Origin: Methanococcoides sp. LMO-2
Lineage (GTDB): Archaea > Halobacteriota > Methanosarcinia > Methanosarcinales > Methanosarcinaceae
NCBI RefSeq assembly: GCF_038432375.1
Contig: NZ_JBCAUS010000002.1
Span: 62,001-126,000 of the forward strand
Reading direction: 5' to 3'
Length of the DNA: 64,000 nt
The position numbers and the translations under genes were made by a program. The notes below the pieces were generated by a model. It saw nothing but the letters and a program-made list of their open reading frames with translations. It ran no database searches and was not told the origin of the DNA. This document shows positions 41,152 to 45,702 of the stretch, piece by piece (within the stretch, counting starts at the first letter, position 1; every line of letters begins with the position of its first letter).

Positions 41152-41901
41152 TTATATATGTTCTGAAATATTAAGACCCATTTCCTCATCCAGATAGTTG
41201 AATACCTCCACAAGGTCATCATACCTCTCCCTGGCATAATCATCGAGTGGAGTCGGCATGTTGTTAACGATCACAAGCTCACCGCCATGATCAAGGGTAT
41301 ACAACGGAAGCGTAGCCGCCGGCTGGACCACCAGTGTTGACCCAAGCACAATGATCAGGTCCGCCTTCGAGCTCTCCTCAATGGCCTTCTCGATCACATC
41401 ATGCTCAAGCATCTCCCCATAGAACACAACATCCGGCTTGATCAGCCCCCCGCACTCATTGCACATGGGAACCTCCTCCTTCTCAAGAAGCCCCACAACA
41501 TCCTCAAAGGAATACTTCTTCCCGCACGCAAGACACGTATGCTTCGCCGGAGACCCGTGAACCTCAATAACGTTCTCAGACCCCGCCCTCTGGTGCAACA
41601 TATCGATGTTCTGCGTGATCACCGCCTTAACGATCCCTCTCCTTTCAAGCTCTGCCAGGGCCTTATGGATGATGTTCGGCTCCTTCCTCTCAAGATCATA
41701 TATCAGTTCCCTGGAATGCGTATAAAAATATGAAGGGTCCTCGTGGAAGTAGTCTATCGAAAAGATGAGGTCCGCATCAAACTTGTTGTAGATCCCGTCC
41801 TTCCCCCGGAAGTCCGGTATGCCTGAAAGCGTGGATATCCCTGCTCCGGTTAGGATGACGCAGTATTTTGAGTTTTGGAGGAGGGTTAGGAGTTCTTGCA
41901 T
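41152..41901 (-). CDS. Sir2-family NAD-dependent protein deacylase
   Basis: The 249-residue enzyme has the sirtuin core: VILTGAGISTLSGIPDFRG near residue 15, ITQNIDMLHQRAG, the catalytic histidine in EVHGSPAKHTC, and a zinc module of four cysteines (CLACGKKY and CNECGGLIKPDVVFYGE). LGSTLVVQPAATLP completes the NAD pocket. It should remove acyl groups from protein lysines, with Alba or metabolic enzymes as usual archaeal targets. It lies alone and its composition is core-like, unlike the A+T-rich island that starts just downstream on the other strand. Confidence 0.94.
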   Translation of the reverse strand: MQELLTLLQNSKYCVILTGAGISTLSGIPDFRGKDGIYNKFDADLIFSIDYFHEDPSYFYTHSRELIYDLERKEPNIIHKALAELERRGIVKAVITQNIDMLHQRAGSENVIEVHGSPAKHTCLACGKKYSFEDVVGLLEKEEVPMCNECGGLIKPDVVFYGEMLEHDVIEKAIEESSKADLIIVLGSTLVVQPAATLPLYTLDHGGELVIVNNMPTPLDDYARERYDDLVEVFNYLDEEMGLNISEHI

Positions 41902-42048
41902 GAGTTAAGGTGGGGTGGTTATGGTACTTATAGGGGGAGGTGGGATGAATGATTTACTTTTGTTGTTTTGTATAGAGAAGGTTATGATATTTATTTAATA
42001 AATAAATTAAAGAACCTTGTAACCATATATTTACAGGGGGTAAAGATA

Positions 42049-42846
42049 ATGCCATTTGAACCTAGGTTATGGGATTCAAATTTAATTACAAGAATCGATA
42101 AATTCCTCAACACTATAAATATTGATGAATGGTATAAGAAGTATGATTGGAATAATGATTCTTGGAATAATGGTTTTCCTGATATTTTCGAACTTGAAAT
42201 GATCATTGGTGAGGCAGTTAAAAATAAATCTTTAACTGTAAACCACATTATAAAAGTAGCTAAGTGGGGAGGCAACAACCGTAGAATTGAATGTGATGGT
42301 ACTATAGATGTGCCGATTTATGATGGACATAATATCGCAAAGTGGGTTGAAGAGGAGCCGGAAAGATACATTGATGATATTTGTTCTCACATCAAGTACT
42401 TTGGACCAACGTATGGGAGTAAATTGCTTCGTTTTGCTCTTCCTTCTGAATATGGTGCAATTGATACAAGACTTGTTAGGGTTTTTGGGAGTTGTGATGA
42501 TTTTAAGAACTGCATTAATTTATTGAACCTTAAAGCGTCTCATCAAAATAAAGAGAAGCGATGGTCTATTGCTAAAAATAAATCCCAATGGCCAAGTGAA
42601 TACGGAACTTGGATTAATGTCTTAAGATACATTGCAAAACAAATGAATGAAAATGATGTGAATTGTCCACATCCAGACTGTTTTGTTGAGACAAAACTGC
42701 GTGATAATGGTTTATGGTGTTGTGCAGATGTCGAGATGGCTCTTTTTTCCTATGCCAGTTATTTTATTAAAACTAAAAATAAGGGGTCTGCAAATGGATG
42801 TGCTTACGAATCAACAAGAAAAAATTACTCATTATCTAATTACTGA
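42049..42846 (+). CDS. OGG/HhH-like hypothetical protein, island gene 1
   Basis: I recognise this 265-residue protein only loosely. It is helical and aromatic-rich. A segment KYFGPTYGSKLLRFALPSEY followed by GAIDTRLVRVFG resembles the region of OGG-type helix-hairpin-helix glycosylases where a lysine precedes an aspartate-containing helix. The end has CPHPDC and WCCADVEMALFSYAS. There is no signal peptide. The start ATG 42049 has a strong GGGGGT ribosome binding site 8 bases upstream. Its last 53 bases overlap the next gene, so translation is coupled. Codon use is A/T-ending. Base-excision or DNA-binding function is an inference. Confidence 0.65.
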   Translation: MPFEPRLWDSNLITRIDKFLNTINIDEWYKKYDWNNDSWNNGFPDIFELEMIIGEAVKNKSLTVNHIIKVAKWGGNNRRIECDGTIDVPIYDGHNIAKWVEEEPERYIDDICSHIKYFGPTYGSKLLRFALPSEYGAIDTRLVRVFGSCDDFKNCINLLNLKASHQNKEKRWSIAKNKSQWPSEYGTWINVLRYIAKQMNENDVNCPHPDCFVETKLRDNGLWCCADVEMALFSYASYFIKTKNKGSANGCAYESTRKNYSLSNY

Positions 42847-43555
42847 AGGGAAATTTTTTTGGGATAATGATGAAATTGATAATTTCACGAATGACCCAGA
42901 AGCAGATAAATTAGTGAAAAATATTTATGATTTTCCTCATGCATTTGTGCTTGCTGCTGTAATGGATAGAGGAATTGATGCGGAAAGAGCTTGGGCAATA
43001 CCCTACGAAATTTCAATTAAAATTGGGAATTTCGATTTCTCTAATCTTAGAAATCTATCTTTAATGGATATTGAGAAACTTTTTAATGATAACAAACTGC
43101 ATCGTTATAATAATAAAATGGCAGACTGCTTTTTCAGTGCAGTGCAAAAAATTGATACTGATTATGAGGGTGATGCATCAAAAATTTGGGATGCAAATCC
43201 AAAAAGCGCTATAGTAGTTAGACGTTTTCTTGAATTCAAGGGTATAGGTGTCAAAATTGCAACAATGGCGACTAATATGCTTGCAAGAGATTTCAAGATT
43301 CCGATGGCTGATTGTAATGGCATCGACATATCTCCAGATGTTCAGACAAAAAGGGTGTTTAAAAGAATTGGTCTCATTAGGAAGAATTCTAGTGATGAAG
43401 AATTACTTTATTCTGCCAGAGCTATTTACCCTTAGTATCCTGGAATTATGGATTATCCTTCTTGGAAAATCGGTAGGGATTTTTGTAGACCAAAAAATCC
43501 ATATTGTAAATCTTGTCCATTGAATGGGTGCTGTCCAAAAATAATTGAATTGTAA
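42794..43555 (+). CDS. Endonuclease III-like DNA glycosylase with in-frame TAG (candidate pyrrolysine)
   Basis: From ATG 42794 (AAGGGG upstream) 213 codons run to TAG at 43433-43435, then 39 more codons continue in phase to TAA at 43553. Before the TAG lies an HhH glycosylase core: FKGIGVKIATMATN (148-161), with a lysine (154) where endonuclease III has its catalytic Lys, and SPDVQTKRVFKRIGL with an aspartate (182) in the catalytic-Asp position. After the TAG comes WKIGRDFCRPKNPYCKSCPL, then NGCC. This is the exact C-x6-C-x2-C-x5-C [4Fe-4S] loop of that family (C231, C238, C241, C247). Termination at TAG would remove the whole cluster. I infer amber decoding as pyrrolysine, giving 253 residues; a nonsense mutation is the alternative. 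Confidence 0.8.
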
Positions 43556-43576
43556 TCCTGTAATTGTGGTGATATT

Positions 43577-44212
43577 GTGACTAATTCAGATGATAAGATA
43601 CTGATAATTGGATCCTGCACGAGTTCAAAAAAGTATTCCCCACTTAACGAAGCAACTGAGGATGAACTGGATGATCCCATTTTAAGAAAGCAGAAAGAAG
43701 AGGAACTAAACAGATACACAGTTGATGCACTTGATATGTATCAGGGAAAGCAGCACACATTAACATGTGAAGCATTCAAATTGTTGCAAGAACAAGGCAA
43801 AAATGTTGATTTCTGGATTATTTCTGCTGGATATGGTCTTATAAAATATGATACAAAAATTATTCCTTATGATGTGACTTTTGCTCAAAAAAGCAGGAAA
43901 TACGTAAAAAGTAGAGGAAAACTACTCAACATTCCCGATGATTTTGACAAATTGATAAAACACTACGATAAAGTAATTTTGCTTCTGGGAAAAGAATACC
44001 TTCTATCACTTGATTTTCCGCGGCCTATTGATGAAAATGTTGAAATAATAGCCATGGGGGGAAAGGAAACTAAAAAGTTGCTTCCAGACCAAAAGAACAT
44101 TCATTTTATCCCTGCTGGAAAGGAGGAAGGGAAAAAGTATGGTGCAGCATTGATTTACCTGAAAGGTGTTATTCTCAAAAAGATGGTTGAAGAACACCAA
44201 TTTGATCTTTAA
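43577..44212 (+). CDS. DUF6884/YaaA-like protein, island gene 3
   Basis: The 211-residue soluble protein starts at GTG 43577 with GGTGAT close upstream. It has CTSSKKYSPLNEA near the N-terminus, a helix with MYQGKQHTLTCEAFKLLQEQ, then WIISAGYGLIKYDTKIIPYD. The C/S-x-SKK start plus the ISAGYGL...PYD pattern is what I associate with DUF6884 and YaaA-related proteins, some of which occur with DNA-modifying systems or respond to oxidative DNA damage. The function here is unknown. It lies 21 bases after the glycosylase gene and 23 before the GIY-YIG gene, so the four genes look like one operon. Confidence 0.65.
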   Translation: MTNSDDKILIIGSCTSSKKYSPLNEATEDELDDPILRKQKEEELNRYTVDALDMYQGKQHTLTCEAFKLLQEQGKNVDFWIISAGYGLIKYDTKIIPYDVTFAQKSRKYVKSRGKLLNIPDDFDKLIKHYDKVILLLGKEYLLSLDFPRPIDENVEIIAMGGKETKKLLPDQKNIHFIPAGKEEGKKYGAALIYLKGVILKKMVEEHQFDL

Positions 44213-44235
44213 ATTTGATATTCGAAGGTGTTTAT

Positions 44236-44880
44236 ATGAGTGATAAGTGTAGGTTATTACATCAATATTTCAATGGGATGGAGAAATTGAGTTTTCCTTT
44301 CGCAAATAAGGATATTCCTCAAAATGGGATATACATTCTTTTCGAAAAAGGAGAACATGCACACGATACTGATAGGATTGTACGGGTTGGTACCCATACT
44401 GGTGAAAACCAGTTAAGGTCGAGACTTCGCCAGCACTTCCTCAAAGAAAACAAAGATCGAAGTATATTCCGAAAAAATATTGGCCGGGCTCTTTTAAACA
44501 AAAAAGATGATCCTTTTCTTGAACATTGGGAATTGGATCTAACAACCAGAAAAGCAAAAGAGAAATACAATTTTTCTATTGATCACGATAAACAAAAAGA
44601 AATAGAAAACGAAGTCACGAAATATATACAGAACAATTTCAGTTTTGTTGTTTTTCCGGTTGTTGAGAAAGACAAAAGACTTGAAATTGAACAGAAACTG
44701 ATATCGACAATATCTCTATGCAGTGAATGTGCCCCTTCAGAAGATTGGTTTGGCCATTACTCTCCTAAAAAGAAAATACGCGAAAGTGGAATGTGGCTTG
44801 TTAATGGTTTGTATAAGGAACCGATGTCAGAGAAGGATATGGAATGGTTAATGGAATTACTAAAAATAAGTAAGAACTAA
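44236..44880 (+). CDS. GIY-YIG-like nuclease, island gene 4
   Basis: The 214-residue protein shows a GIY-YIG-type start: NGIYILFEKGEHAHDTDRIV with the GIY part, then VRVGTHTGENQLRSRLRQHF, where VGTHT stands for YIG and is followed by the catalytic-arginine region. The helical KNIGRALLNK and a later IENEVTKYI may contain the metal-binding glutamate. The C-terminal third, with CSECAPSEDWFGHYSP, is unlike common members. It probably cuts DNA. AAGGTG precedes ATG 44236. As the last gene of the island it may cleave DNA opened by the two glycosylase-like proteins; this is inference. Confidence 0.75.
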   Translation: MSDKCRLLHQYFNGMEKLSFPFANKDIPQNGIYILFEKGEHAHDTDRIVRVGTHTGENQLRSRLRQHFLKENKDRSIFRKNIGRALLNKKDDPFLEHWELDLTTRKAKEKYNFSIDHDKQKEIENEVTKYIQNNFSFVVFPVVEKDKRLEIEQKLISTISLCSECAPSEDWFGHYSPKKKIRESGMWLVNGLYKEPMSEKDMEWLMELLKISKN

Positions 44881-44883
44881 TTT

Positions 44884-45702
44884 TCAAAAATCAAAAATTA
44901 AATAATCCCTCCTCTTCCTTTTTGAAATCAACAAATAAACCACACCAAGAAGCAACAACACAATACACCCAATCGTCATATTGATAATCACAGGATACTG
45001 CCCCCCAAATCCATCAGGCGATGTGTGCTTCAACAATATTCCTGAATAAGCCCAGACAATAACAAGTCCGTAGGCAACATCCCTGTTCTTCAGCATTGTT
45101 GCAAGGCCGATAACAAGTCCTAAAGCAATTACTATAACAGTCCAGGAAGCGTCACTCAAAATGAAGTCTTTCCAGCCCAGGCTGACAAGAAGTATAGTTG
45201 CATTGGCAATGGTTGCTACGGTGATCCATCCGAAGTAAACGCTAAATGGAAGCCTGATAAAGAAATATTCGTTTTCAGAAAACTGTTCCCTGCTTGTCAG
45301 TTGATTTATCAGGATCAGGCAGATGAGGATCACGATCATCAGCAACATGGATAATGGGATTATTTCATAGTGCCATGCGAAGATCCAGGATGCATTGGCA
45401 ATGGAAGATACAGAGAACAGGATTCCGATCTTATAGATGAGTTCGGTCCTTTCGGTGGTTTTGTTTCCCTGAAAAATGCCAAGCTGGTAAAGGGTGTAGC
45501 CTCCCAGTAATAGGTATATGAGTCCCCAGATCGAAAAGGTCGCTCCGGCAGGGGCAAAAAGATTGGGGTAGGAGTCTGAGAGCTGGCCGGTGGTGATGTC
45601 ATTGATGGGGAGGATGTTGGCCAGTGCGTTGACGGTGATCATTATCAGGAACGTTAGTGTGGTGATGATTTTTATTGTTTGATTTCTTTGGGTTGTGTTC
45701 AT
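44884..45702 (-). CDS. TspO/MBR-related tryptophan-rich membrane protein
   Basis: The 272-residue protein has about eight membrane helices. The helix FAPAGATFSIWGLIYLLLGG and later LPFSVYFGWITVATIANATI match the TspO-like family often labelled tryptophan-rich sensory protein; it is longer than classical TspO (about 160). Relatives bind porphyrins or small lipophilic ligands, but the long form is not characterised to my knowledge. The gene is convergent with the island, its stop only 3 bases from the end of the GIY-YIG gene, so it marks the right border of the island. Confidence 0.75.
   Translation of the reverse strand: MNTTQRNQTIKIITTLTFLIMITVNALANILPINDITTGQLSDSYPNLFAPAGATFSIWGLIYLLLGGYTLYQLGIFQGNKTTERTELIYKIGILFSVSSIANASWIFAWHYEIIPLSMLLMIVILICLILINQLTSREQFSENEYFFIRLPFSVYFGWITVATIANATILLVSLGWKDFILSDASWTVIVIALGLVIGLATMLKNRDVAYGLVIVWAYSGILLKHTSPDGFGGQYPVIINMTIGCIVLLLLGVVYLLISKRKRRDYLIFDF

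What the first reader, a model, noticed from the sequence alone, without database searches (positions are those of the whole stretch)
42049..44880. Four-gene A+T-rich island combining two glycosylase-like proteins, a DUF6884/YaaA-like protein and a GIY-YIG nuclease
Seen: same strand, 53-bp overlap or gaps of 21 and 23 bases, strong ribosome binding sites, A/T-ending codons, sharp borders between core-like Sir2 and TspO-like genes. Known: base-removing glycosylases plus an AP-site cutter can act in base-excision repair, and DNA glycosylases acting on modified phage DNA have been described as antiviral. Inference: the set could recognise modified or damaged bases and cleave the DNA, a repair or anti-virus module not known to me in this combination.
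Basis: partly seen in the sequence, partly recalled or inferred. Interest (0 to 1): 0.78.

Follow-up and report, generated by a model that had tools for sequence, protein, structure and literature searches.

The report
Candidate antiviral nuclease pair plus glycosylases
A foreign 3-kb DNA insert in a methane-producing archaeon carries a widespread two-gene nuclease already catalogued as a possible anti-virus system, with two unrelated base-removing repair enzymes beside it; only the nuclease pair recurs elsewhere, so the four genes are probably not one machine.

Summary
The island is real: a 2.96-kb insert (about 41936-44896) with four same-strand genes, in a slot where sister genomes carry other cargo, much of it defence-like. 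It is not a conserved four-gene system. Genes 3 and 4 (DUF6884/YaaA-like and GIY-YIG) are the two halves of PADLOC's uncharacterised candidate PDC-M57. The pair recurs in at least 65 of 80 bacterial and archaeal loci, usually overlapping by a few bases, fused in six; none of the 80 carries both glycosylase families. A second Methanococcoides shares only the C-D block (83.5% DNA identity, dN/dS about 0.1). Gene 1 is a probable HhH glycosylase whose own recurrent neighbour is an HFX_2341 regulator. The genome has PylS and tRNA-Pyl and rarely ends genes with TAG, so pyrrolysine read-through is likely. Best reading: a two-part nuclease that recognises abnormal or modified DNA and cuts it, probably antiviral, with two independently acquired glycosylases alongside. 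Joint action of all four is possible but unsupported outside this genome.

The parts
41936..44896 (.). inserted cargo in a variable slot between Sir2-like and TspO-like genes
   Evidence: blastn to four same-genus genomes: homology stops at 41935-41961 and restarts at 44897/44898
42049..42846 (+). gene A: probable monofunctional HhH-type DNA glycosylase (OGG-like), 265 aa
   Evidence: PF21790 below cut-off (0.0047; 7 of 9 relatives hit, best 2.4e-4); invariant FGP.Y...D139T..VR motif
42794..43555 (+). gene B: endonuclease-III-like HhH-GPD glycosylase with Fe-S tail, 253 aa when TAG is read as an amino acid
   Evidence: relatives hit PF00730 6e-7 and EndIII_4Fe-2S 5e-4; profile hits solved Endo III 1e-8
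43433..43435 (+). in-frame TAG (codon 214 of gene B), likely pyrrolysine; Glu in homologues
   Evidence: PylS, tRNA-Pyl; TAG ends only 8 of 344 ORFs
43484..43534 (+). four cysteines C231, C238, C241, C247 of the 4Fe-4S motif, downstream of the TAG
   Evidence: invariant in alignment A3
43577..44212 (+). gene C: DUF6884 / YaaA-like, PDC-M57A (long form), CTSSK and ISAGYG motifs
   Evidence: PF21818 1.6e-7 above cut-off; PDC-M57A 1.1e-8 and DpdC 8.9e-13; motifs
44236..44880 (+). gene D: GIY-YIG nuclease, PDC-M57B; G31-I32-Y33, R50-V-G-T-H54, R63, H67, E152
   Evidence: PDC-M57B 1.7e-102; conservation; fold of a homologue matches UvrC GIY-YIG and R.Eco29kI
41152..41901 (-). flanking Sir2-like deacylase gene, edge of the slot
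   Evidence: found in 10 of 11 genus genomes
44884..45702 (-). flanking TspO-like gene, edge of the slot
   Evidence: found in 6 of 11 genus genomes

Best explanation
The functional core is genes C and D, a two-part nuclease of the candidate defence type PDC-M57. Protein C (YaaA/DUF6884 fold) probably binds DNA and flips out an abnormal nucleotide (an abasic site, a mismatch or a modified base); the GIY-YIG protein D then cuts the strand. As cargo of a defence hotspot it most likely acts against viral or foreign DNA. Genes A and B are two base-removing HhH glycosylases of separate origin that sit upstream in the same insert; they may supply abasic sites but are not required parts. Protein B is probably made full length by reading UAG as pyrrolysine. 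Shown here: the families (gene A only as probable), the C-D coupling, the slot, the lack of A or B partners elsewhere, the UAG. Inferred: the DNA target, cutting, the antiviral role, pyrrolysine insertion.
For: C lies directly upstream of D in at least 65 of 80 loci from diverse bacteria and archaea, mostly overlapping by 4-8 nt, with six C-D fusions. Model of a fused C-D chain: pLDDT 94.9; the C part matches YaaA 5caj (Z 9.8, rmsd 2.8, 126 residues) and AF0587 2q07 (Z 8.5); the D part matches the UvrC GIY-YIG domain 1yd6 (Z 5.3, rmsd 3.0, 83 of 88 residues) and R.Eco29kI 3mx4 (Z 4.7). D catalytic residues are nearly invariant; CxxxK in 62 and LSAxxG-like in 65 of 65 C proteins. Methanococcoides L100 shares only C-D, with dN/dS about 0.08 (C) and 0.09 (D). 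The slot carries type III R-M, TmtA/DrmD-like, McrBC, methylase and PDC-S14 genes in sister genomes. Some M57 loci adjoin type I R-M genes. Literature: the DUF6884 protein YfjM is reported among binders of abasic and ribonucleotide lesions (PMC11701544); DpdC, a DUF6884 protein, acts on preQ0 in DNA (PMC12839542, PMC11888242).
Against: No experimental test of PDC-M57 was found; the PADLOC label is itself a context-based guess. High conservation of D across domains would also fit a repair role. The window's long C form is only distantly similar to the common 140-aa C. GIY-YIG Z values are modest. The flanking-gene tally had no control set.
Confidence: 0.55

Rival explanations
1. All four genes form one base-excision-coupled restriction module: A and B remove modified viral bases, C recognises the abasic site, D cuts.
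For: Same strand, same low G+C, tight spacing, one insert; DUF6884 protein YfjM is reported to bind abasic lesions (PMC11701544); the closest viral relative of B (47%) lies beside DpdA-, QueC- and Vut_1-type genes of DNA base modification, and C resembles DpdC.
Against: No other locus combines them: none of 80 C-D loci has both; A occurs without C-D and has its own HFX_2341 neighbour in 6 of 9 well-flanked loci; L100 has C-D alone. The A/B overlap looks like a read-through junction.
Confidence: 0.18
2. The genes serve DNA repair of the host rather than defence: glycosylases for damaged bases and a lesion-nicking C-D pair in a horizontally spread repair cassette.
For: YaaA belongs to the oxidative stress response and YfjM binds lesions (PMC11701544); A and B resemble repair enzymes; D is strongly conserved.
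Against: Patchy distribution (30 of 392 genomes in the phylum and none of the 7 other sampled genomes of the genus) and location in a slot of defence cargo are unlike housekeeping repair.
Confidence: 0.2
3. Side question on gene B: it is a decaying pseudogene, in which a Glu codon (GAG to TAG) mutated, giving a 213-residue protein without its Fe-S cluster.
For: Homologues have Glu at that position, one base from TAG if coded GAG; the full-length B family was found in no other sampled genome of the genus.
Against: PylS and tRNA-Pyl are present; TAG ends only 8 of 344 long ORFs and most of those have in-frame continuations; the 39 codons after the TAG keep all four cysteines.
Confidence: 0.2
4. 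A mobile element remnant: the GIY-YIG protein is a homing-type nuclease that moves the cassette, with no immune role.
For: GIY-YIG families include homing nucleases; C-D is found as a block at different places in two Methanococcoides.
Against: No integrase, clear border repeat or tRNA at the borders; C-D fusions and the constant C partner do not fit a homing nuclease.
Confidence: 0.05

Closest known systems
PDC-M57 (PADLOC-DB phage defence candidate, models M57A and M57B)
   Same: D matches M57B over its whole length (1.7e-102) and C matches M57A (1.1e-8); same order and orientation
   Different: C is the long 211-aa form; two glycosylase genes precede the pair and are not part of the listed system
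Brig1 and Brig3 antiviral DNA glycosylases
   Same: idea of base removal as a weapon; small operon with a second protein (Brig3-BapA)
   Different: Brig1/Brig3 belong to the uracil-DNA-glycosylase superfamily (PMC13160076); A and B are HhH-type by motif; BapA is an ASCH protein, not DUF6884 or GIY-YIG
R.PabI restriction glycosylases
   Same: base excision plus strand break as restriction
   Different: HALFPIPE fold with a cognate methylase (PMC10273834); no methylase lies in this insert
Dpd 7-deazaguanine system (DpdC)
   Same: C shares the DUF6884 domain (DpdC models 8.9e-13)
   Different: no DpdA, DpdB or DpdD-K gene lies in the insert; a GIY-YIG protein is not among the Dpd components named in PMC11888242
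Endonuclease III / MutY and TIGR03252 HhH-GPD proteins
   Same: B has the GxGxK lysine, catalytic Asp and Fe-S cysteines
   Different: B is far from the TIGR03252 cut-off (60 vs 136 bits) and carries an internal UAG

Membership tests
PDC-M57 | M57B GIY-YIG protein | tested here: met
   PDLC04713 1.7e-102 over residues 1-209 of 214
PDC-M57 | M57A DUF6884 protein adjacent and upstream on the same strand | tested here: met
   PDLC04712 1.1e-8; 23 bp upstream; same order in at least 65 of 80 loci
PDC-M57 | embedded in or beside known defence systems | tested here: inconclusive
   slot cargo in sister genomes is defence-like and some relatives adjoin type I R-M genes, but the window insert holds no known system and no control set was scanned
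PDC-M57 | antiviral activity | not testable with these tools
   needs plaque assays; no report found
DUF6884 (PF21818) | CxxxK and LSAxxG motifs, YaaA-like fold | tested here: met
   CTSSK and ISAGYG in C; PF21818 32 bits vs cut-off 30; fold of a homologue Z 9.8 to YaaA
GIY-YIG nuclease | GIY...YIG motifs with catalytic R and E on a GIY-YIG fold | tested here: met
   GIY exact, YIG replaced by RVGT, R63, H67, E152 conserved; homologue matches UvrC domain, Z 5.3; Pfam PF01541 itself is below cut-off
HhH-GPD bifunctional glycosylase (gene B) | HhH with GxGxK, catalytic Asp, 4Fe-4S cysteines | tested here: met
   K154, D182, C231/C238/C241/C247 invariant; PF00730 6e-7 and PF10576 5e-4 in relatives
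OGG-like glycosylase PF21790 (gene A) | score above curated cut-off | tested here: not met
   17.1 bits vs 27; 7 of 9 relatives hit, best 2.4e-4; profile comparison with Endo III not significant
Brig1/Brig3 antiviral glycosylases | uracil-DNA-glycosylase superfamily fold | tested here: inconclusive
   A and B carry HhH-type motifs, but no Brig sequence was compared and the model of A failed
Dpd system | DpdA transglycosylase with DpdB-DpdK | not tested
   only a DpdC-like domain is in the insert; the whole genome was not searched for DpdA

The most novel reading that the evidence does not exclude
The four genes act together as a base-excision-coupled restriction module: two HhH glycosylases, one containing pyrrolysine, remove modified viral bases (possibly 7-deazaguanines), the DUF6884 protein recognises the product, and the GIY-YIG nuclease cuts there.
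Probability: 0.17. Interest if true: 0.75.

Novelty: new member of a known kind. Interest (0 to 1): 0.42.

Why it matters
PDC-M57 is a catalogued but unexplained candidate. The C-D fusions, the YaaA plus GIY-YIG architecture and the wide cross-domain spread turn it into a concrete, testable idea: a lesion- or modification-sensing nuclease. The same insert offers a natural test of whether glycosylases enhance it, and a possible pyrrolysine protein outside methylamine metabolism.

Tried and rejected
Conserved four-gene neighbourhood: rejected. A as a component of M57: rejected, since its recurrent neighbour is HFX_2341/DUF6293 (6 of 9 loci). A compared with B and with archaeal Endo III by profile: no significant match. 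A against solved structures by sequence profile: none. AlphaFold of A alone: useless (pLDDT 33). D against solved structures by sequence: only chance hits. Relatives of A in viral contigs and plasmids, of D in phages and plasmids, of the phage B protein in phages: none. Direct repeats or tRNA at the borders: none meaningful. PF21790 in archaea: only sub-threshold hits. Literature on PDC-M57: no paper in the held library.

Full report
What is there. Four genes on the plus strand fill 42049-44880: A (265 aa), B (253 aa with one TAG read through), C (211 aa) and D (214 aa). The genes have G+C 0.33-0.35 and are among the lowest of the window at third positions.

The insert is a cargo slot. In same-genus genomes the Sir2-like and TspO-like genes border a variable stretch. 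Homology to the window ends at 41935-41961 and resumes at 44897/44898 in four genomes. Their cargo differs: a PDC-S14 GIY-YIG protein (G041), a TPR protein (G032), a type III restriction enzyme and methylase with an HKD-SNF2 helicase (G095), and TmtA-like, DrmD-like, McrBC and methylase genes (G294). A fifth genome has Sir2 but no TspO there (G251). This makes the location a defence hotspot. No tRNA or clear border repeat was seen.

Genes C and D are a unit. C passes the Pfam cut-off for DUF6884. D matches PADLOC's PDC-M57B at 1.7e-102 and C matches PDC-M57A at 1.1e-8. A genome-contig scan with a D alignment returned 80 loci at 55-83% identity from many phyla. C was recognised directly upstream of D in at least 65 of them, usually with a short overlap, and six loci encode one fused C-D protein. 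The rest lack a recognised C or D, some because the contig ends there. A second Methanococcoides (L100) shares with the window only the block 43583-44861, at 83.5%, with dN/dS near 0.1. Thus C-D is kept by selection and is found without A and B.

Fold evidence. A fused homologue was modelled at pLDDT 94.9. Foldseek alone gave YaaA at E 0.009. VIA-align 2 placed residues 1-133 on YaaA 5caj (Z 9.8, rmsd 2.8, 126 aligned) and 1-131 on AF0587 2q07 (Z 8.5, rmsd 2.7, 107 aligned), and residues 158-325 on the UvrC GIY-YIG domain 1yd6 (Z 5.3, rmsd 3.0, 83 aligned of 88) and 138-325 on R.Eco29kI 3mx4 (Z 4.7, rmsd 3.6, 108 aligned). The GIY-YIG Z values are in the range where chance is possible, but full-domain coverage and conserved GIY, RVGTH, R63, H67 and E152 agree.

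Gene A. Its relatives share FGPTYxSKLLRFA and GAIDTRxVRxFG, which I read as the HhH hairpin and catalytic Asp of HhH-GPD glycosylases. The lysine of bifunctional enzymes is replaced by Thr, which would make it monofunctional (inference). Pfam OGG-like matches stay below cut-off and profile comparison with Endo III is not significant, though it puts the two motifs in register, so the fold is probable, not shown. In six of nine well-flanked loci A lies beside a divergent HFX_2341/DUF6293 regulator. That partner is absent from the window.

Gene B. Relatives match HhH-GPD and the Endo III Fe-S domain; solved Endo III and MutY structures are hit at up to 1e-8. K154 in GxGxK, D182 and the four cysteines are invariant. 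The TAG at codon 214 replaces Glu of three homologues. The genome has PylS and, next to it, tRNA-Pyl. In 464 kb only 8 of 344 long ORFs end at TAG, and most of these, including two that look like MtmB methyltransferase, continue in frame. Pyrrolysine read-through is therefore more likely than truncation; only protein data can settle it. Full-length relatives of B are rare: three other genomes of 294 and three viral contigs. One of these, L229, is a phage contig with a terminase-like gene and RusA, whose B-like gene faces a ParB, a DpdA-like transglycosylase, QueC and a Vut_1 transporter. With the DpdC resemblance of C this hints at 7-deazaguanine DNA, but it is a single case.

Do the four belong together? 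None of the 80 C-D loci has both A and B families; two weak hits (L117 B 1e-4, L164 A 0.0065) look like housekeeping or chance. In 294 genomes A occurs in 10 and close B relatives in 4, overlapping only here. A also runs about 20 residues past its homologues into B, as a join would leave.

Mechanism. The best-supported reading is a two-part nuclease: C senses and flips an abnormal nucleotide, D cuts. The sensing step leans on the reported lesion binding and model of the DUF6884 protein YfjM (PMC11701544) and on DpdC chemistry (PMC12839542). Antiviral use leans on the hotspot and on PADLOC, whose PDC sets came from guilt-by-embedding and mostly await tests (PMC12988326). Compared with Brig1/Brig3 (PMC11078745, PMC13160076) and PabI (PMC10273834), the logic could be similar but the families differ.

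Verdict. A good observation with an over-reaching interpretation: a known candidate defence pair, in a defence slot, beside two unrelated glycosylases, one with a probable pyrrolysine codon.

Noticed in passing
window 43433-43435: In-frame TAG in the glycosylase gene of a genome with PylS and tRNA-Pyl: a possible pyrrolysine protein outside methylamine metabolism.
   Followed up: partly
L229:4711-8765: Phage contig with a gene-B relative (47%) beside DpdA-like, QueC, ParB and Vut_1 genes of 7-deazaguanine DNA modification.
   Followed up: partly
G000:C8:3627-3770: Fragment matching the last quarter of PDC-M57B: probably a decayed second copy in the same genome.
   Followed up: no
L086, L088, L089, L090, L091, L094: Gene-A relatives lie beside a divergent HFX_2341/DUF6293 regulator in several genera: a separate recurrent pair of unknown role.
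   Followed up: partly
G294:C1:1395401-1398642: Partial duplication of TspO inside the same cargo slot (second copy 92% identical to the query), a trace of repeated insertion.
   Followed up: no
L036:8486-10531 and L041:2416-4347: PDC-M57B fused to a C-terminal extension of more than 400 residues of unknown nature.
   Followed up: no
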